From Psychrobacillus sp. FSL H8-0483 (GTDB taxonomy: Bacteria > Bacillota > Bacilli > Bacillales_A > Planococcaceae), in assembly GCF_038637725.1 (NCBI RefSeq), contig NZ_CP152052.1, positions 1,285,501 to 1,349,500 of the forward strand: a DNA stretch of 64,000 nucleotides, written 5' to 3'. Both the position numbers and the translations under genes were made by a program. The notes beneath the pieces were generated by a model, which searched no databases, was not told where the DNA came from, and worked only from the letters and a program-made list of their open reading frames with translations. Positions 46,138 through 54,754 of the stretch are shown here, piece after piece; the first letter of the stretch is position 1, and every line of letters begins with the position of its first letter.

Positions 46138-46551
46138 ATGAGCTTTAAGATTGCCGTATTTGTTTGTTTAATTTTAATGGGGTTAGTGGCGTGTATTACC
46201 TATTATCTAGGAAAAAAAGTGTCCAATAGTCTAATGAAATATATTCCTGTTTTTTCTTTTGCTATTGGTGTGCTCTTCTTTTATATCAAACTTAACTTTA
46301 TTTCTTATAAACCAAATTCCTTCGATGGCATTTATGATATGATCGCAATTATTATACTTATTATTGTTTGTAGTATTGCTTTTTTAGAAGCGGTCATAAT
46401 TGATATTGTAGAAAACAGAAAATTATTTAAGAGAAGCAATATGGCTGTACGAAAGGCAATAAAATTAATAGATGTAAAGAAAGTATTTAAGATTAAAATG
46501 CCAGGTGGTATTGTCAAGAAAATTAGGGGTTATATAGGAATGATTAGATAA
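46138..46551 (+). CDS. Small membrane protein, unknown
   Basis: 137 residues with three hydrophobic segments in the first 95 residues (IAVFVCLILMGLVACITYYL onward) and a basic C-terminus rich in Lys/Arg/Ile. A GAGGTG site precedes the ATG, and a good terminator follows at 46616. I do not recognise the family, though small YesK-like proteins have a similar layout. Monocistronic. Confidence 0.6.
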   Translation: MSFKIAVFVCLILMGLVACITYYLGKKVSNSLMKYIPVFSFAIGVLFFYIKLNFISYKPNSFDGIYDMIAIIILIIVCSIAFLEAVIIDIVENRKLFKRSNMAVRKAIKLIDVKKVFKIKMPGGIVKKIRGYIGMIR

Positions 46552-46748: not shown

Positions 46749-48206
46749 ATGAAGAAAAAATGGATGACCATGGTGATGGCTTGGATGTTGGTTATGGGCA
46801 TGTTCAGTTTTCACAATGTTGCTCAAGCAGAAGAATCAGTAGAGGAAACGTTAAGCGATTCTATTACTAGAATTGTAGAAGAAAAATTAGCCGGAGCAGA
46901 TGTGAGTATTACGGTAAGAGACCGAATCTCTGGTGAAATGGTATATGACTACAATGCTCAAACAACTATAAAACCAGCATCCAATATGAAACTGTTAACC
47001 ACTGCAGCGGCTTTAGATGTACTAGGAAAGGATTACCGTTTTAATACAAGCCTTTATACTACTGGGAAGATGTCCAATGGGGTTTTAAAAGGTGACGTCT
47101 ATTTAAAAGGAGAAGGTGATCCAACCCTATCCATCGGAGACCTACAACAGTTCGCAGCAGAGTTAAAAGCACAGGGTATTCATAAAATTGATGGCCGGAT
47201 TGTCGGTGATGACAAATGGTTTGATGATGATTTATTAACACCTGGGATTTGGGTTGAGGACGAGTCTTATTATTACGCTGCACCTATTTCAGCTTTAACC
47301 ACTTCTCCAAACACAGACTACGATTCTGGAACGATTATCGTAGAAGCAATTGGGACTGTAGTTGGAGAATTACCTTCCATTAAAGTAACGCCGAACATTG
47401 GTGATTTACAAATAGTAAATGAAGCACAAACTGTAGAATCTGGAAAAAGCAATACAGTAACAATTGAAAGATTATATCAAACAAACCAGATTGTCATTAG
47501 TGGGAATCTTCCTGTCGATAAAACGAAAAAAGAATGGGTGACTGTTCAGCATCCAACGACACATACATTGACAATGTTCCAAGCAGTTTTAGCAGAAGCA
47601 GGAATCGAGTATTCAAAAGAAAAAGTATTTCAAGCTGCAACACCACATAGTGCTCAACTCGTTGCAATGAAGCAATCAATGACACTGGAGCAACTGTTAA
47701 TCCCGTATATGAAACTAAGTAATAATGGTATTGCGGATATTTTAGTAAAAACAATGGGTAAAGTGAAAAATCATCACGGTAGCACAAAGGCTGGTTTAGA
47801 AGTTATAAAAGAATATGGAAACTCAAATAACTTAAATATGGCAGATTGGCAATTTGAAGATGGCTCTGGAATGTCTCATGAAAATAGGGTTTCGAGTTTA
47901 TTAGTGAGTGAATTGTTGTATAAAGTGCAAGGAGAAGATTGGTTTACTACCTATTTTACTAGCTTGCCAGTAGCTGCAAATACGGATCGAATGGTAGGAG
48001 GTACTTTAAGAAACCGATTAAAAGATCCGCTAACGGCAGGAAAAGTCTATGCAAAAACAGGCTCATTAACTGGTGTTAGTACACTAAGTGGTTATTTAGA
48101 GGCAAGCAGCGGGCAATCATATATCTTTAGTGTGTTGGTTCAAAATAAATCGGGGGCATCCACAGCGATTGATGAAATTGTGAAAGAAATAGCGGAAGAA
48201 TTGTAG
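46749..48206 (+). CDS. D-alanyl-D-alanine carboxypeptidase/endopeptidase, PBP4 (peptidase S13) family
   Basis: 485 residues. Signal peptide with cut near AQA-EES (residue 28). All three penicilloyl serine motifs are present: SxxK in KPASNMKLLTTAAAL, SxN in KLSNNGIADI and KTG in YAKTGSLTGVS. A large insert between the first two motifs is typical of S13 enzymes (DacB). It acts outside the membrane on peptidoglycan peptides. Symbol dacB is avoided because B. subtilis uses that name for an S11 sporulation enzyme; the nearest B. subtilis relative is dacC-like. Confidence 0.92.
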   Translation: MKKKWMTMVMAWMLVMGMFSFHNVAQAEESVEETLSDSITRIVEEKLAGADVSITVRDRISGEMVYDYNAQTTIKPASNMKLLTTAAALDVLGKDYRFNTSLYTTGKMSNGVLKGDVYLKGEGDPTLSIGDLQQFAAELKAQGIHKIDGRIVGDDKWFDDDLLTPGIWVEDESYYYAAPISALTTSPNTDYDSGTIIVEAIGTVVGELPSIKVTPNIGDLQIVNEAQTVESGKSNTVTIERLYQTNQIVISGNLPVDKTKKEWVTVQHPTTHTLTMFQAVLAEAGIEYSKEKVFQAATPHSAQLVAMKQSMTLEQLLIPYMKLSNNGIADILVKTMGKVKNHHGSTKAGLEVIKEYGNSNNLNMADWQFEDGSGMSHENRVSSLLVSELLYKVQGEDWFTTYFTSLPVAANTDRMVGGTLRNRLKDPLTAGKVYAKTGSLTGVSTLSGYLEASSGQSYIFSVLVQNKSGASTAIDEIVKEIAEEL

Positions 48207-48662
48207 TGATTTGAGTTAGTGCTACTACTATTCATCATGCATGGGAAGAGGAACAAATAAGAAATAAGCCTGTAAACTTAATTATTTCAACTGAACTAGA
48301 TATTTGATGCGAATAAAAACACCTTTTCGTTGAAACCGGGTATTGTACCTGTAAATACAACGTGGAGGTGTTTTTTCTATTGAGGAAAGAGACTTCTTGT
48401 TTAGAGTAGGGTAAAGATAGATATCTTTAAATCTCGTAGAGATTTTAATTGGTTATTAGACGCTGCTTAGACAAGAGAGGAAGTGAACCAACATGTAATT
48501 GCGGATGCTTTATTAACTTTTCTATTATGAGTAATTAAAACTAACCGTACTAAAGAAAAGTTAATAATAAGTTTTTAATTACAAAACTTTTATATTTTGT
48601 TACTATATACCTGTATTGATATTTCTAACTTGGTTCATTTTTAATGGGGAAGGAGTGCTTTT
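48207..48662. other. Intergenic at the left edge of the AT-rich island
   Basis: Terminator hairpin at 48315-48376 (aaaaacacc/ggtgttttt with inner cgttg/caacg pairing), then about 285 AT-rich bases before the first reverse transcriptase gene. No frame seen. It may hold the promoter and part of the noncoding RNA of the DRT3-like system. Confidence 0.5.
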
Positions 48663-49913
48663 ATGAGAAAAATTATAATGGAAAATTTGTCGGAATTATA
48701 TAATGAAGAAGAAAAAAATATACGTGAAGTTATTAAATTATATAAAATACCAGAAAAATACAAATTAATAAATGTTAAAAGCAGATTAGTAGTGGAGAAG
48801 GGTGAAATTTCAAATAATAATAACATTACGTTAGATTACTTTAAAGAATTATTAAATCGTCTTTATAACATCAGATTTCCAAATAGATCTTTTATTATGA
48901 AAGAATTAATGAATATTATTCCTTATCTTAATAAATATCATCAATATACAATAATTAAAATAGATTTTGAAAAGTTTTTTTATAATGTTAATGTTGGAGA
49001 AATAAAAAAAATATTAATAAATGATGGTTTACTGTATGAAAAAGAATTGAATTTTTTAGTCAAGTATTTAAATAAAAATAGAATTCTTTATCCCGGAGTA
49101 GGTATCCACAATACTTTATTAGAAATACTTGGAGATAAGTTTAACAAAAAGGTAAGAGAGACTTTTAAGGACGATGGGCTAATATTTTTCGCTAGATATG
49201 TAGATGATTCCATTTTAATATTTGATCAACATTTAGATGATCAAGATGTTATGGACAAATTAAAACAAATAACTTCAAAAGTTTTGGGAAAAGATATAAA
49301 AATAAATCAAAATAAATCAAAAGTAATAAAATCCACAGATGGAATCGAAAAGTTTGAATATTTAGGATATTTATTCGAGAAACGACAAAATGGTAAATAT
49401 TGCATAGGTATTGCTAGTTCAAAGTTAAAAAAATACAAAATAAAATTAGAAAAAATTGTGTTGGAATATAAAGGTGACAATAATCTTGAAAAAATGTGTT
49501 TAAAGTTAGAAATTCTTTATAAAAGAACAGTTTATTGGGGAAATACTAGAAAAATAAAATACAAGAGATGGCAAGTGAGGGGGTTAAGTGATTCGTACAA
49601 AGAATTAAGGAGGTTTATGACTAACTTAGAAGATTTCTCTAAAATTACTAAAGAGACTGAAAATTTTTTTGTTAAAGATTTAGAAACTATTTTTAAAAAG
49701 AACTCTCTTAATATTCCACCTGAAATAGAAAGTAAGATTGCAAATAAATCTTATAGTGCTGCATTCTTTAATAATAGAGCTATAATGCTAAATAAAACTA
49801 TCGGATTAAGTCAAAAAGACTTAGTCAAAAGGCTCGATACTTTGGGGGTATCAGTAAAAAATGGTACTAGTTATGAGGAATTGGCCTTATCTTTTCTTAA
49901 GAAAATTCCTTAA
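48663..49913 (+). CDS. drt3a: Reverse transcriptase of the UG/DRT group, Drt3a-like
   Basis: 416 residues, start supported by GGGGAAGGAG. RT palm motifs: A in IIKIDFEKFFYNV (metal Asp), B-like PGVGIHNTLLEIL, C in FFARYVDDSILIFD (YVDD), D/E in KSKVIKSTDGIEKFEYLGYL. The C-terminal third (YKRTVYWGNTRKIKYKRWQV onward) has no maturase X or integrase domain, so this is not a group II intron RT. Followed 169 bases later by a second RT, the layout of the two-RT DRT type 3 phage defence system (UG3 plus UG8). Extremely AT-rich: 8 of 60 bases at 48961-49020 are G or C, unlike the flanks, indicating transfer. Confidence 0.8.
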   Translation: MRKIIMENLSELYNEEEKNIREVIKLYKIPEKYKLINVKSRLVVEKGEISNNNNITLDYFKELLNRLYNIRFPNRSFIMKELMNIIPYLNKYHQYTIIKIDFEKFFYNVNVGEIKKILINDGLLYEKELNFLVKYLNKNRILYPGVGIHNTLLEILGDKFNKKVRETFKDDGLIFFARYVDDSILIFDQHLDDQDVMDKLKQITSKVLGKDIKINQNKSKVIKSTDGIEKFEYLGYLFEKRQNGKYCIGIASSKLKKYKIKLEKIVLEYKGDNNLEKMCLKLEILYKRTVYWGNTRKIKYKRWQVRGLSDSYKELRRFMTNLEDFSKITKETENFFVKDLETIFKKNSLNIPPEIESKIANKSYSAAFFNNRAIMLNKTIGLSQKDLVKRLDTLGVSVKNGTSYEELALSFLKKIP

Positions 49914-50082
49914 AAATAGAAAACCGATGAATATGAAGAAATTCAACGGTTTCTTTAAAAGATAGCTAAATTTTAAGATGAACTTATGTAACTTGTAAAG
50001 CTAAACAGGTTCATCCCAATCAATATTATCTTTTGATATTGTGTATAAATACATTAACAAAAAATAGGAAGAGGTGTCAAGT
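49914..50082 (+). ncRNA. Candidate noncoding RNA or attenuator between the two RT genes
   Basis: Two hairpins: aaaccg(a)tgaat/attca(a)cggttt at 49921-49952 and gatgaac/gttcatc at 49977-50015, followed by the ribosome site of the second RT. DRT3 systems need a noncoding RNA, and this is a structured intergenic candidate. The first hairpin could instead be a plain terminator. The other candidate regions are 48377-48662 and 52050-52290. Confidence 0.3.
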
Positions 50083-52049
50083 ATGAATAAAAAATTCTTG
50101 CGTCTAAAAAGGCAGTCTTTAGATTATTTATTAACAGATCTACTACCTTATGAAAAAGGAAATCATTATACACACCGTTATTTTTATGAATATATTATTT
50201 CAAATAAAAAGACTTTTAATAAAATACTAAAAAACTTAAAATATCAAGTTCCATATTTTGATCCAAAGTGGCACTCATCTCCTTTAAGTTTTAAAGTAAG
50301 TAAAAGGGTTGGGGGTTTTAGAGAAATCTCTTTTGTTAACCCTCTTGGATTAATTCAATCTCTCTTTTTTATTGAATTATTTCAAGACGAAATTTTAACT
50401 GCAATAAGTAATAAAAAAAGTTTTTCTATTAGAAAAGCAACTTATACAAATGAATTATATTATAAAAAAAATAACAAACAAATAGTAACGTACAACTCAC
50501 AAGGAAGTGGGAAGAATCAATTACTTATTTCTTTAGAATCCAGTGGTAGCTATTTTAAACATAAACCTTACAAAACAATAACTAGCTATCTAAATAGTAA
50601 TCACTTTTTTAAAACAAAAGAACGATATAGATTTTTAATGAAACTGGATATACAAAATTGTTTTCCTAGCATATACACTCATTCTTATAAATGGATGATT
50701 ACAAATAAAACATATGATTCAAAAAATTTAAAAGTCACCAATACTATTCATAAAAACATTGATACATATTTACAAAATATTAATGGTTCAAAGACTAATG
50801 GTGTGATTGTAGGACCTGAAATCAGTAGATTATTAGTTGACTATCTATAATCCACCTAGATCAGTTAATTTATGAAGAATTAGAATTAAGAGGCCTAATG
50901 TTAAATAAGGATTATAAAATACATCGATTAGTTGACGATTTCTACATATATACTCAAAAAAAAGATGATGAAGAAATAATATTGGAAGTAATTTCATCTC
51001 GTTTAAACAAGTTTCAACTTTTTTTAAATCAAGGTAAGATTCAAAGATTAAATAGTGAAACACCTATAAATTCATGGGTTTTCAAGGTAGAAGGAATAAT
51101 TAAGAAATTAATGCAACAGTTTGAATTCTATCAAGAGAAAAGTAAAGATGAAAACAATGATGAAGATGATAAATTAAAAGTAAAACAAATAAACCTAAAT
51201 AAACTTCAACAAGAAATACTACTAATAATACAAGAAACAAACGAAAAAGTGTTGGTTAGTTCATATATTTTCTCCACGCTATTAAAATTTATTGAGATGA
51301 ACAAAAATATAAAAATTGATTCTAAGTACTTGGAACCAATATTGAATTTAGCTACCTTTCTTTATGTACAAAACGTAAGTTACGATTCTACCCAAAAAAT
51401 TATAAGATTGTACACTTTAATTATAAATATACAGCCTGAATATATGAAAGAGAATATTAGTTGGAATATAGAAAGATATAGAGAGGCTATATTTGGCAAT
51501 TTCACGAATGATTGGATAGATATCTTGTTATTTATTTCTACTTACAATATACAGTTGAATACAAGTACGCATGAATATATTTTCAATAATTTAGACTTTA
51601 GAGATAACCCGGTGAATTTAGCAGTAAAGCTAATAAATCTTAGTTCTAAAGGTAAACTTCCAAAAAACGAAGTGGAAAAAATAGATAAGATAATAAAAGA
51701 AAAGATAAGTTTAATAAACTGGCAATGCTTTTTTGAAGACCCAAATAGTTGGTGGGTTTTAATATTCTATTCTTTCCCTCATTTAAAGAAGGACACTAAA
51801 GACATTCTTAATATTAAATTGAAATCCATTATAGGAATTGAAGGTGATGAAGATATTTCATACGAAGACAATGATTCTGCTATTTTGTTAGCAAATAAAT
51901 TTATAATAAAATTTATACTTGACAAAAATGCACATTTTATAGAATGGGATTTTGCGACTGACAAATATTTAGAAAAATATTTTTTTTATACCAAGAATAG
52001 GATGCTTTTTAATCCTGGCAACATTGTTGACTTTGATATTTCAAGATAA
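50083..52049 (+). pseudogene. drt3b: Second reverse transcriptase, Drt3b-like, split by a one-base deletion
   Basis: The ATG at 50083 follows GAGGTG. Frame 1 (to 50850) holds GGFREISFVNPLGLIQSLF, motif A RFLMKLDIQNCFPSIYTHS and motif B TNGVIVGPEISRLLVDYL, then stops. Frame 2, open from 50841 and recognised from 50898 to 52049, continues with motif C IHRLVDDFYIYT and the thumb-like C-terminal part. Adding one T in ctataatcc near 50848 joins them as VDYL-LIHLDQLIYEEL in a single frame of about 655 codons, the size I expect for Drt3b. So the gene is broken by a natural frameshift or by a base-calling error in an A/T-rich tract. Same AT-rich composition as drt3a. Confidence 0.78.
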
Positions 52050-52294
52050 CAATTTTTTGCTGTTACAATGATTTACTGACTCACAATGAAATAAGTTCTT
52101 ACAAGATAATTAATTAGTTTTCTAAATTAGTTCTTATAAGAAAGGTTACAAAGCATTCCTTCAAACGACTCTGGATACCTTATTCACCTCTTCATCTGTA
52201 ACACACTTCAAAAAAACTAAAAAACTAAGTGCGCAGTGGTTGCTAGAGTGCGACGGATACACATTTGCCACAGGATTACCGAAAAGAAAAAAAC
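52050..52294. other. Region after the second RT gene, no gene seen
   Basis: Two related strings, agttcttacaagata (52094-) and agttcttataagaaa (52129-), form a direct repeat with internal symmetry. Includes gtaacacacttc (ACACAC at 52201-52206). Possible site of a noncoding RNA for the RT pair; nothing conclusive. Confidence 0.35.
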
Positions 52295-52330
52295 GGCTGG
52301 AAGTGAAGAAGTCAACTTCCAGCCTTTTTT
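52295..52330. terminator. Terminator between drt3b and rqcH
   Basis: Stem ggctggaagt/acttccagcc with T run on the right and A run on the left; works for both strands. Confidence 0.85.
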
Positions 52331-52405
52331 ATCATTCTCTCGTTGAAGGTGTAGTAGATGTGCAATCCAAAGCAAACCGGAACCCATCTTGGCACCATGA
52401 TATTT

Positions 52406-54091
52406 CTATTTCTTCATATGTCTAATCTTCTCTTCATCCGGCGTGACAAACAATGTCGTCTGTTCAAAATAAATCACAAACCCTGGTTTAGCCCCGCTCG
52501 GTTTCTTCACTTGCTTAATCACTGTATAGTCAACCGGCACGGAAGCAGATTCGCGAGCTTTACTAAAATAGGCTGCAAGATTGGCTGCCTCTAATAGTGC
52601 TGTATCAGATGGATTGTCGGAATGTATAACAACATGGGATCCTGGGATATCCTTGGTATGGAGCCATGTGTCTGTTTTTCTTGCTAGTTTGAATGTAACG
52701 AAATCATTTTGTTTGTTGTTTTTGCCGACGGAAATTTCTGTGCCGTCTGAGGCAATGAATTTTTCAGGCGTTGGTTTTGTTGGTTTTTTCTTCTTTTTCG
52801 ACGCTCTTGCTTTCAATAAGCCTTGCTCGGTTAGTTCTTCTCGAATTTCTTCGATGTCGGTTGGCGATGCTTGCATCACTTGTTGTAGTAGTAATTCGAA
52901 ATAAGCAATATCTTCTTTTGTGATTTCGAATTGCTGCTCAATTTTGAGTAATGCTGTTTTTGCTTTTGTGTATCGGTTGTAGTAGCTTTGTGCATTTTGA
53001 GTTGGTGTTTTTCGGTTGTCTAATGGAATAACGACTGTTTTTTCATTTTCGTCGTAGTAGTTCACTAGCTCAACTTCTTTTGCCCCTTTTTCCATTGCGT
53101 AGGCATTTGCCATTAATAGCTCGCCGTATAGTTGGAAAGTATCTAGTTTTTCAGCTTGTTCGAAGTCTTTTTGGAGTTTTTTCATTTTTAGCTTCAATTT
53201 ATTTAATTCGTTTTGAAGCCATCTTTCTAAATCTCCCGCTTGCTGTTTTACACGGTCGCGTTCTGCTTTGGCAAAATACACTCGATCTAGTAAATGTCCT
53301 AGATTTTTTTCCTTATATTTGTCTCCATCTAAATGGCTTAAAGCATTTGGCGAATAAAAAGTCTTCCCATTTAATTCGACTATTTGTCTTGTTGATCCGC
53401 CTTGTTCAAATTCTTTCATATATGCTTTATAAACTTCCACTCTATCAGTTGCTTCATTAAATCGATAAAGTAGTTCTTTTGCATGTAAAGGAGAGAATCC
53501 CGAAATTTGCTCCACAATTTCTTTGGATTCATGGGCTGATTGAATCACATTCAACAGTTCCTCTGAATACTCTAATGGATGGAGTTTATTTTGAGTCGGT
53601 GGGGCAATATAAGGTTGACCCGGCAAAATCGTTCGATAGCTATTCATGGAAGGGGATAAATGCTTGATACATTCCAAAATAAGATTTCGACTAGGGTCCA
53701 CTAATAACAAGTTACTATGACGCCCCATAATTTCCATATGGACTTCTCGAGTAATGTCATCTCCAATTTCGTTTTTACTTTGAATTTGGAAGATGATAAT
53801 ACGATCTGTTTCGTGTTGACGAATGGAAGAAATGATTCCACCTTCTAAATGTTTACGCAAAACCATGCAAAATAATGGAGGTGTTGCAGGATTGTCAATT
53901 GTTTCGTTCGTAATTTGTACACGCGAATAAGAAGGGTGTACAGAAAACAATAATTTATAGTTCTTCCCTTGCGACCGGATTTGCATTAAGATTTCTTGAG
54001 CATTTGGTTGGTGTATTTTAGAAATACGCCCTGTTATTAATTGTTGCAATTCAGTTTTCATTGATATTGTAAATAAACCATCAAAAGCCAT
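52406..54091 (-). CDS. rqcH: Rqc2 homologue RqcH (NFACT protein), formerly fibronectin-binding protein A
   Basis: 561 residues from the ATG at 54091, seven bases after AGAGGA. NFACT-N domain (MAFDGLFTISMKTELQQLIT ... LFSVHPSYSRVQITN, with DR-type residues in MGRHSNLLLVDPSRN), two coiled-coil arms (residues 280-430, RWLQNELNKLKLKMKKLQKD) and NFACT-R domain (VGKNNKQNDFVTFKLARKTD, WLHTKDIPGSHVVI). RqcH binds stalled large ribosomal subunits and adds alanine tails to nascent chains. It is usually near gmk in Bacillales (yloA), here in the opposite direction across a repeat-rich spacer. Confidence 0.93.
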   Translation of the reverse strand: MAFDGLFTISMKTELQQLITGRISKIHQPNAQEILMQIRSQGKNYKLLFSVHPSYSRVQITNETIDNPATPPLFCMVLRKHLEGGIISSIRQHETDRIIIFQIQSKNEIGDDITREVHMEIMGRHSNLLLVDPSRNLILECIKHLSPSMNSYRTILPGQPYIAPPTQNKLHPLEYSEELLNVIQSAHESKEIVEQISGFSPLHAKELLYRFNEATDRVEVYKAYMKEFEQGGSTRQIVELNGKTFYSPNALSHLDGDKYKEKNLGHLLDRVYFAKAERDRVKQQAGDLERWLQNELNKLKLKMKKLQKDFEQAEKLDTFQLYGELLMANAYAMEKGAKEVELVNYYDENEKTVVIPLDNRKTPTQNAQSYYNRYTKAKTALLKIEQQFEITKEDIAYFELLLQQVMQASPTDIEEIREELTEQGLLKARASKKKKKPTKPTPEKFIASDGTEISVGKNNKQNDFVTFKLARKTDTWLHTKDIPGSHVVIHSDNPSDTALLEAANLAAYFSKARESASVPVDYTVIKQVKKPSGAKPGFVIYFEQTTLFVTPDEEKIRHMKK

Positions 54092-54300
54092 AATATTATC
54101 CTCTTTCAAAACGTTATTTTAATCTGGTTCTAGATGCCAGGTACTCTTTTTTAAAACACTTTTTAATCAGTTATCCAGTCTCATCTCCTTGCCAGTACAT
54201 TGAATAACTCTAAATTGGTTTTTTAGAAACTATTCGCCTAATCTTATCTTCATATGAAAGGATTTAGCGCGGCGGCATGAGACTCCTGCGGGATCAGCGA

Positions 54301-54550
54301 TAGGGCACTGAAAAACTCTATTACAGAATTTTTTATGATAAATATTCGATGTGACGATACTCTGTACTATAGGATTTAGCACGGCGGCGTGAGACTCCTG
54401 TGGGAAAGCGAGACAGCCGAGACCCCGCACGAAGCGTAGCGTAGGAGGAGGCTTGGCGCTCGCCCACGGAAAGCGAACAGAGCCGTGCTAAATCCAATTA
54501 GCGGATGTTTATTAGGAATTTTATTAGAATACCATTTTTTCAGTGCCCTC
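54301..54550. mobile_element. MITE-like element, 250 bp, with 8-bp target duplication
   Basis: Terminal inverted repeat AGGGCACTGAAAAA (54302-54315, and as complement at 54536-54549). Flanked by the direct repeat atcagcga at 54293-54300 and 54551-54558. It has split an older GC-rich repeat. Inside lies another repeat copy at 54372-54495 whose ends pair (ggatttagcacggc/gccgtgctaaatcc). No transposase; a mobilising IS is not in the window. Confidence 0.75.
54372..54495. repeat. REP-like palindromic repeat inside the MITE-like element
   Basis: 124 bases, GC-rich, with 14-bp complementary ends (ggatttagcacggc). Contains gactcctgtgggaaagcg, gagaccccgcacgaagcg and gcgctcgcccacggaaagcg, all matching parts of the outer copy at 54260-54715. 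Confidence 0.8.
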
Positions 54551-54754
54551 ATCAGCGAGAAAGACGAGACCCCGCACGTAGCGTAAAAATAGGAAGGAAG
54601 GCTAATGGCGCCTCCTCCTGAGGCAACGCCTTCATGACCAACATCGTGTTGGCCCAGGAGGCTCGGCGCTCGCCCCGCGGAAAGCGAATGCCAGAGCGAT
54701 AAATCTGAGTAGTACACGCATTTAATGAAACTAGATAATGCTTTTCTTATTATC

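What the first reader, a model, noticed from the sequence alone, without database searches (positions are those of the whole stretch)
48663..52049. Two-reverse-transcriptase locus resembling DRT type 3 phage defence, on an extreme AT-rich island
Seen: two adjacent RT genes of about 416 and 655 codons, with palm motifs (YVDD in the first; LVDDF in the second), no intron-maturase or integrase domains, and strongly lower G+C than flanking genes. Known: DRT type 3 pairs a UG3 RT (Drt3a) with a UG8 RT (Drt3b) plus a noncoding RNA. Inference: this is a DRT3 system acquired horizontally and inserted between a PBP4-type gene and rqcH.
Basis: partly seen in the sequence, partly recalled or inferred. 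Interest (0 to 1): 0.8.

Follow-up and report, generated by a model that had tools for sequence, protein, structure and literature searches.

The report
Two-enzyme phage defence with mini-template RNA
A bacterium carries a two-polymerase anti-phage system of a known kind (DRT3), one gene of which is broken here; its relatives share an unusual, very short guide RNA, read backwards between the two genes, whose copied template seems to sit at the RNA's very first base.

Summary
The locus is real and is a DRT3-type (Drt3a + Drt3b) anti-phage reverse transcriptase locus. It lies on an AT-rich segment (48,382-52,223; GC 0.254 against 0.369) at a site that holds other genes in a relative. The new part is the RNA. 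The E. coli DRT3 RNA lies downstream of drt3b on the same strand. In six of six loci of this Bacillota clade the drt3a-drt3b gap instead encodes, on the opposite strand, an extended sigmaA-type promoter, exactly 6 nt later 5'-ACACAAUAUC, a stem-loop and a terminator-like hairpin. The predicted transcript starts at the first base of the ACACA template. In two sister loci a helix ends exactly at that base, so the RNA's 5' end may have replaced a boundary helix. Drt3b keeps the residues that select A and C, but the primer tyrosine of E. coli is replaced by a penultimate serine (48 of 49 complete C-termini). Verdict: a new variant of DRT3, probably making poly(GT)/poly(AC); this copy may be inactive.

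The parts
48382..52223 (.). AT-rich segment absent from the same site of a relative; holds the whole DRT3 locus
   Evidence: blastn of the window against L231 (G142): homology ends at 48381 and resumes at 52224; GC 0.254
48663..49913 (+). drt3a, intact reverse transcriptase, 416 aa, YVDD
   Evidence: PDLC03768 1.9e-35; family profile to 9z6y_A 1.5e-16; model pLDDT 91.3; nearest folds DRT9; DRT2 at rank 8
49908..50044 (-). predicted antisense DRT3 ncRNA (129-137 nt), 5'-ACACAAUAUC...terminator-like hairpin
   Evidence: 49916-50044 folds at -34.2 kcal/mol, z -5.8; coordinates; same design in 6 of 6 clade loci
50075..50080 (-). -35 element TTGACA of the ncRNA promoter (just before the drt3b start codon)
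50051..50059 (-). extended -10 element TGT-TAATGT of the ncRNA promoter
   Evidence: the hexamer matches only 3 of 6, so the simple scan does not list it
50035..50044 (-). conserved 5' leader ACACAATATC; ACACA (50044-50040) is the presumed poly(TG) template
   Evidence: identical in 6 of 6 loci; unpaired in all six folds
49957..50034 (-). stem-loop 1: outer stem 50034-50027 with 49964-49957, inner stem 50015-50009 with 49983-49977
49908..49952 (-). stem-loop 2 (49952-49941 with 49932-49921) and T-rich tail, terminator-like
   Evidence: not found by the strict scan
50083..50850 (+). drt3b, 5' piece (RT motifs up to GPEISR; E24 and R249, counted by me, align with the E22 and R241 positions of the E. 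coli enzyme)
50898..52049 (+). drt3b, 3' piece (LVDD, helical-repeat part, C-terminus ...DISR); homology in this frame starts at 50853
52041..52043 (+). codon of the penultimate serine, candidate primer residue
   Evidence: penultimate Ser in 48 of 49 complete C-termini of the clade; window piece ends DISR
46749..48206 (+). left flank: PBP4-type D-Ala-D-Ala carboxypeptidase
52406..54109 (-). right flank: RqcH/NFACT-type gene

Best explanation
This is a locus of a Bacillota subtype of the DRT3 anti-phage system. Shown by computation: an intact Drt3a, a Drt3b interrupted once, and between them, on the opposite strand, the signals of a small RNA gene with its own promoter. Inferred: the RNA starts at or within a base or two of 5'-ACACA, binds Drt3a, and ACACA is copied over and over into poly(TG); the RNA's own 5' end is the template boundary, so synthesis runs off and resets, where DRT10 uses a stem-loop. 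[quoted passage not shown] The strands pair; build-up of the duplex when phage blocks the host nuclease (here AddAB in place of RecBCD) would stop growth. In this genome drt3b is out of frame, so this copy is probably inactive unless the break is a sequencing error.
For: Family; the Drt3b tree places the window in a clade of 12 rows, support 100/99, within a joint group of 16 rows, 100/100. Catalytic and base-selecting residues E, R, D, R, DD are present in every clade row that covers them; the window N-piece has E, R, D, R. RNA: 6 of 6 clade loci have TTGAC[A/C], a 17 or 18 nt spacer with TG before the -10, TAnnnT, 6 nt, ACACAATATC on the minus strand of the gap; 0 of 3000 shuffles of each gap hold promoter plus ACACA, 0-2 the promoter alone; the longer motif occurs in 1 of 398 genomes drawn from the phylum, the window's own, and in one viral contig, the one that holds L057. 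Folds z -5.4 to -11.2, first 10 bases unpaired in all six. Sister loci L234 and L235: a helix ends exactly at the base where ACACA begins, 0 of 300 shuffles each. Penultimate Ser in 48 of 49; Tyr within 4 of the end in 41 of 42 rows outside the joint group. AddA present, RecC not over cut-off.
Against: No transcript, cDNA or phage data. The composite motif was written after seeing the six loci. The window's -10 hexamer matches only 3 of 6; the consensus scan of the region found no more promoters than shuffles (26 against 25.9) and no terminator. Covariation is thin: 4 sequences, 4 pairs with both-sided changes, 12 of 500 shuffles as high; further pair types reach 86 of 500; stem-loop 2 is only 65% paired in that alignment. 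The template is 5 nt, not 6. In L235 a second promoter candidate of equal score would start 3 nt before ACACA, which weakens the contrast with the sister group. The helix test is strong in 2 of 4 sister loci and, of the nine loci of the other branch, only L236 (0.02) and L004 (0.05) come near. The C-terminal tail is unplaced in the structure model (pLDDT under 50), so serine priming rests on conservation alone. Drt3b is broken here.
Confidence: 0.72

Rival explanations
1. The hairpins belong to the plus strand: a drt3a terminator and a leader of drt3b (attenuator or stability element), and no antisense RNA is made.
For: The hairpins fold on either strand; the whole gap folds more stably on the plus strand in 3 of 6 loci, L032, L033 and L057.
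Against: The promoter pattern lies on the minus strand in 6 of 6 gaps and on the plus strand in 0 of 6; the ACACA motif known as DRT3 template reads on the minus strand; sister loci L198 and L199 have minus-strand promoters of 11 and 12 of 12 matches.
Confidence: 0.1
2. The ncRNA is of the E. coli kind, downstream of drt3b on the plus strand (ACACAC at 52201-52206), and the gap element is regulatory.
For: ACACAC occurs downstream of drt3b in the window and in L005 (2 of 6 loci); the four canonical loci examined with an unbroken drt3b have it there (L196, L197, L200, L201).
Against: 4 of 6 clade loci lack it within 600 bp, and the downstream regions share no sequence beyond one 14-nt match between two loci; in the window it lies 17 bp from the end of the inserted segment.
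Confidence: 0.06
3. The window copy is a dead relic: with Drt3b broken, only Drt3a and its RNA remain and give no defence.
For: Frame change between the GPEISR motif and LVDD; both RT active sites are needed for defence in the E. coli system (PMC13174585).
Against: Only one break; the rest of both frames is open over 255 and 383 codons and active-site residues are kept, so the break is recent or a sequencing error; raw reads were not available.
Confidence: 0.55
4. Drt3b of this clade is primed by an upstream tyrosine (the FYT position, 20 residues from the end) or by a free nucleotide, and the terminal serine has another role.
For: 43 of 49 complete clade C-termini keep a Tyr at -20; the tail is unplaced in the model; in the remaining 43 rows of the joint group 24 have a Tyr in the last 6.
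Against: That position is Phe in 6 of 49 (P0036, P0037, P0054, P0056, P0062, L034), while the penultimate Ser is kept in 48 of 49.
Confidence: 0.35

Closest known systems
DRT3 of E. coli and relatives (Wang et al. 2026, PMC13174585; Deng et al. 2026 known to me only through PMC13174585, PMC13213688 and PMC13314766)
   Same: Two RTs (Drt3a, Drt3b) adjacent; ACAC-type template; Drt3b Glu and Arg that select A and C; catalytic VDD in both
   Different: Predicted ncRNA antisense between the genes, not downstream; 64-133 nt as folded here; ACACA not ACACAC; template at the predicted 5' end; no C-terminal Tyr in Drt3b; host has AddA and no RecC over cut-off
Sister DRT3 loci: Erysipelothrix phage SE-1, Bacteriophage sp. 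MT836158, genomes G851 and G858
   Same: ACACA-type motif also antisense in the drt3a-drt3b gap with a promoter at the drt3b start
   Different: By the promoter nearest the drt3b start the template lies 31-117 nt inside the transcript, longer RNA; three of the four Drt3b end in Tyr
DRT10 and telomerase (PMC12632851, passages)
   Same: Repeat synthesis on a short RNA template that is reused
   Different: They set the 5' template edge with a stem-loop (SL5 or TBE); here the RNA end itself would do it. A like case, mouse telomerase RNA, is recalled and was not looked up

Membership tests
DRT3 | Drt3a (UG3-type) RT | tested here: met
   PDLC03768 1.9e-35; family profile to 9z6y_A 1.5e-16, next best 1.5e-9. 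Below the NCBIfam equivalog cut-off, 88 of 200 bits
DRT3 | Adjacent Drt3b (UG8-type) RT | tested here: met
   PDLC03784 1.6e-64 and 3.1e-29 for the two pieces; 9z6y_H 4.6e-27 for the 5' piece, no solved chain at E up to 1 for the 3' piece; not one intact frame, and pieces below the NCBIfam cut-off of 350
DRT3 | Residues that select dATP and dCTP (E22, R241; R71) | tested here: met
   E, R and R at the aligned positions in the window N-piece and the clade
DRT3 | ncRNA with an ACACAC template | tested here: inconclusive
   ACACA on the antisense strand of the gap in 6 of 6 loci; transcript not shown
DRT3 | ncRNA downstream of drt3b, same strand (position in the E. coli system; I do not take it as part of the family definition) | tested here: not met
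   no shared downstream element; ACACAC in 2 of 6
DRT3 | C-terminal priming tyrosine (called invariant in PMC13174585; I do not take it as part of the family definition) | tested here: not met
   Window ends DISR; 48 of 49 clade C-termini have a penultimate Ser, 1 of 49 a Tyr in the last 15
DRT3 | Anti-phage activity and poly(GT)/poly(AC) product | not testable with these tools
   needs cells or enzyme
Group II intron RT or retron RT | Family model above its cut-off | tested here: not met
   Drt3a: TIGR04416 44.7 of 300 bits, retron St85 25.7 of 235; Drt3b 3' piece: TIGR04416 20.4 of 300; Rfam gave no match in 48200-52400 at E up to 1

The most novel reading that the evidence does not exclude
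A DRT3 subtype in which transcription itself sets the template edge: the promoter of a tiny antisense RNA has moved so that the first transcribed base is the first base of the ACACA template, replacing the boundary helix seen in two sister loci, and in which the partner enzyme starts poly(CA) synthesis on a serine instead of a tyrosine.
Probability: 0.38. Interest if true: 0.78.

Novelty: new variant of a known kind. Interest (0 to 1): 0.62.

Why it matters
How repeat-making reverse transcriptases, telomerase included, know where their template ends is a central mechanistic question. A natural RNA of 64-133 nt whose template ends because the RNA ends would be a very small system in which to test it. 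The missing primer tyrosine, in a clade that keeps the nucleotide-selecting residues, makes the chemistry of protein priming testable by single-residue changes. It also suggests that an RNA model seeded downstream of the operon in close E. coli relatives can miss the RNA in a Bacillota branch of DRT3.

Tried and rejected
Overlap of the RNA with the drt3b reading frame: synonymous sites at the 5' end of drt3b are hardly more conserved (0.58-0.61 against 0.54 overall), so rejected. A downstream RNA of the E. coli kind: rejected. Rfam: the only match in the window at gathering threshold is Bacillaceae-1 RNA at 54586-54652; nothing in 48200-52400 at E up to 1. Structure models: Drt3a good (pLDDT 91.3), but the Drt3b relative P0017 has an unplaced tail and no coordinates are returned, so the distance of the serine to the active site could not be measured. 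Foldseek put DRT9 first and DRT2 eighth for Drt3a, and DRT4, DRT6 and AbiK first for the Drt3b relative; 9z6y was not among the 50 rows shown in either, so this is class-level support only. Genome searches: family of G361, 1 of 38 (itself); family of G621, 2 of 159 (itself and G751, an architecture with divergent drt3a); family of G620, 3 of 80 (itself and two sister loci). The name of the host was not obtained from any call. A programmed frameshift in drt3b was considered and not tested; the complete clade proteins are single ORFs.
Full report
WHAT IS THERE. The window lies in a single-contig genome of 4.14 Mb; no call named the host. At 48663-49913 (+) is an intact RT gene of 416 codons with YVDD. 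The second RT gene is not one ORF of 655 codons: it is 50083-50850 and 50898-52049. A Drt3b profile runs to position 235 in the first frame (to 50835) and resumes at 242 in another frame (from 50853), so the frame changes once near 50,850 and almost nothing else is lost. Both pieces keep their motifs. The two genes and the gap lie on a segment of GC 0.254 in a window of 0.369.

FAMILY. PADLOC: Drt3a 1.9e-35; Drt3b 1.6e-64 and 3.1e-29 for the two pieces; other RT models, among them retron and CRISPR-associated ones, score lower. NCBIfam names Drt3a and Drt3b first but below the equivalog cut-offs: 88.2 of 200, 160.5 and 46.5 of 350 bits. A profile of 13 Drt3a sequences finds the solved Drt3a of 9z6y first (1.5e-16; next 1.5e-9); the window's Drt3a alone does not find it at E up to 1e-3 and hits a group II intron RT at 3e-5. 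The Drt3b 5' piece finds 9z6y Drt3b (4.6e-27) and 26cz (1.4e-24) first; the 3' piece finds no solved chain at E up to 1. Of 13 Drt3a relatives found, the nearest is 45% identical, so this is a divergent branch. Among 398 genomes drawn from the class, 20 had any match to the clade profile; only the window's genome and G361 were below 1e-100, and three more (other branch) lay at 1e-41 to 1e-52.

TREE AND RELATIVES. A maximum-likelihood tree of 25 Drt3b rows puts the window in a clade of 12 rows with support 100/99. DNA was held for six of its loci: the window, L005 (G220), L032 (Bacillus altitudinis), L033 (Sediminibacillus halophilus), L034 (G361) and L057 (a viral contig). Its sister group (own support 94/90; joint group 100/100) holds L234 and L235 (genomes G858, G851), L199 (Erysipelothrix phage SE-1) and L198 (Bacteriophage sp. 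MT836158). The other half of the tree holds the published kind (Vibrio L196, Enterobacter L197, Novosphingobium L201, Bacteroides L200) and a third arrangement in which drt3a and drt3b diverge (L003, L004, L038, L202, L236); in those the ACACA motif lies in the divergent gap on the drt3a strand.

WHERE THE RNA IS. Of PMC13174585 I read parts 1-3 of 13 of the text, the Discussion, two methods sections, figure legends part 1 and found passages. There the RNA of the E. coli system lies downstream of drt3b, with ACACAC in a loop; the RNA model was seeded with 250 nt downstream of closely related operons and then searched within 1 kb on either side of drt3b homologs, giving 32 unique hits. The four canonical loci with unbroken drt3b fetched here have ACACAC 50-222 nt after drt3b, which checks the method. 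In the window clade nothing is shared downstream (ACACAC in 2 of 6 loci). Instead the drt3a-drt3b gap holds, on the minus strand in 6 of 6 loci: TTGAC[A/C], a 17-18 nt spacer ending in TGN, TAnnnT, exactly 6 nt, ACACAATATC, a stem-loop, and a second hairpin with a T-rich tail near the drt3a stop. By the usual spacing the first transcribed base is the first A of ACACA; this is inferred from distance, not shown. The promoter pattern is present on the plus strand in 0 of 6 gaps; promoter plus ACACA appears in 0 of 3000 shuffles of each gap (promoter alone in 0-2), and outside these loci nowhere in 1.79 Mb of held sequence. With the longer motif there is one match in 398 genomes drawn from the phylum, the window's own, and one viral contig, that of L057. 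The pattern was written after seeing the loci, so these are tests of specificity, not blind predictions. The folds have z-scores of -5.4 to -11.2 and leave the first 10 bases free in all six. Covariation on the four alignable sequences is modest: stem-loop 1 is 95% and stem-loop 2 65% paired; 4 pairs change on both sides, 12 of 500 shuffles as high; cells paired 11 of 500; further pair types 86 of 500; every slid version is lower on cells paired and on the covariation score. The consensus scan of the region lists neither this promoter nor this terminator; the window's -10 is the weakest part.

BOUNDARY. In E. coli DRT3 the authors link truncated products to read-through into a stem-loop next to the template (PMC13174585), and in DRT10 a stem-loop 5' of the template is proposed to set the boundary (PMC12632851, passages). 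In L234 and L235 a helix of 11 and 9 pairs ends exactly at the base where ACACA begins (0 of 300 shuffles each), followed by ACACATTATCGG and ACACAATATCGG. The window clade has the same ACACAATATC, but the DNA before it is the promoter; none of the six stood out in the same test, though for L032 the script anchored on a wrong ACACA. So the helix may have been replaced by the transcription start. The helix test was strong in 2 of 13 loci outside the clade; L236 gave 0.02 and L004 0.05; the other nine did not stand out. Promoters at the drt3b start, pointing the same way, match consensus in 12 of 12 (L199), 11 (L198), 9 (L234) and 8 (L235) positions; L235 has a second candidate of 8 that would start 3 nt before ACACA.

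PRIMER RESIDUE. PMC13174585 reports Tyr666, in a C-terminal tail of residues 622-667, as primer and invariant. In 120 listed relatives plus 18 loci, 138 rows, Tyr lies within the last 4 residues in 41 of 42 rows outside the joint group (the exception, P0118, looks cut). In the window clade 4 of 53 rows are partial; of 49 complete C-termini 48 have a penultimate Ser (P0060 ends ITS), and 1 (P0045) has a Tyr in the last 15. Some rows look like the same protein from two sources. In the remaining 43 rows of the joint group the end is mixed: 24 have a Tyr in the last 6. The window's own 3' piece, not among these rows, ends DISR. The E, R, D, R, DD set is kept in every clade row that covers it. Serine priming is therefore an inference from conservation; the model of P0017 leaves the tail unplaced.

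HOST SIDE AND SITE. The host has AddA (1334 bits, cut-off 708) and no RecC over cut-off (17.9 of 583 bits), so if the published RecBCD guard logic holds it must run through another nuclease, AddAB by inference. Nineteen genomes of the genus were searched with the PBP4 gene; 14, the window's own included, have a copy at 71% identity or more. Three were followed further: in one (L231) the flanks match to 48381 and from 52224 with 6 kb of other genes between, including an LXG-domain protein; in the other two the rqcH side did not follow within the 11 kb taken. The site is thus variable and the segment most likely acquired.

PRIOR PRINT. Five searches of the paper library bear on this; by the listings three papers centre on DRT3 (PMC13174585, PMC13314766, PMC13213688). 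The words antisense, Gram-positive, Bacillus and serine have no occurrence in the main text of PMC13174585; in PMC13314766 antisense occurs only for oligonucleotide drugs, and Gram-positive, Bacillus and serine do not occur; antisense does not occur in PMC13213688. Of the last two I saw passages only. The Science paper of Deng et al. and Mestre et al. 2022 were not seen, and supplements were not open, so an earlier mention there cannot be excluded.

VERDICT.

Noticed in passing
L006 (G136, same genus) 1501-2817: A shortened Drt3b-like ORF (profile 91-501) lies between two inverted copies of the same 170-codon ORF, as if trapped by insertion elements.
   Followed up: partly
L231 2690-8181 (G142): At the same PBP4-rqcH site a relative carries an LXG-domain protein, an SseB-domain protein and a sulfatase-domain protein: the site looks like an exchange spot; none of the three matches PADLOC.
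   Followed up: partly
L199 1374-4881 (Erysipelothrix phage SE-1, KR816341): A DRT3 pair with an antisense ACACA element sits in a phage genome, annotated as hypothetical protein and DNA binding protein.
   Followed up: yes
P0129-P0136 (Maribacter, Algibacter, Polaribacter and unnamed): Eight Drt3b-like proteins with Lys (Asn in P0136) and Phe or Leu at the aligned R71 and R241 positions; they may select other nucleotides, but at this distance the alignment may be off.
   Followed up: no
L195 (E. coli plasmid CP083496) 2956-4999: Another broken drt3b, annotated as two hypothetical proteins.
   Followed up: no
P0001 (Drt3a of the window): The same Drt3a is listed on two contigs, the 3' Drt3b piece on one: a second assembly may hold this locus; it could not be fetched.
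   Followed up: no
window 54586-54652: Bacillaceae-1 RNA (RF01690), the only Rfam match in the window at gathering threshold; pieces of 54305-54495 match L231 in more than one place.
   Followed up: no
window 46138-46551: ORF of 137 codons with no Pfam or NCBIfam match at E up to 1e-3, in a low-GC stretch left of the PBP4 gene.
   Followed up: no
window 48510-48567: Perfect 14-bp inverted repeat in the AT-rich stretch before drt3a, and an 18-bp one (83%) at 48315-48375 by the left edge of the segment.
   Followed up: no
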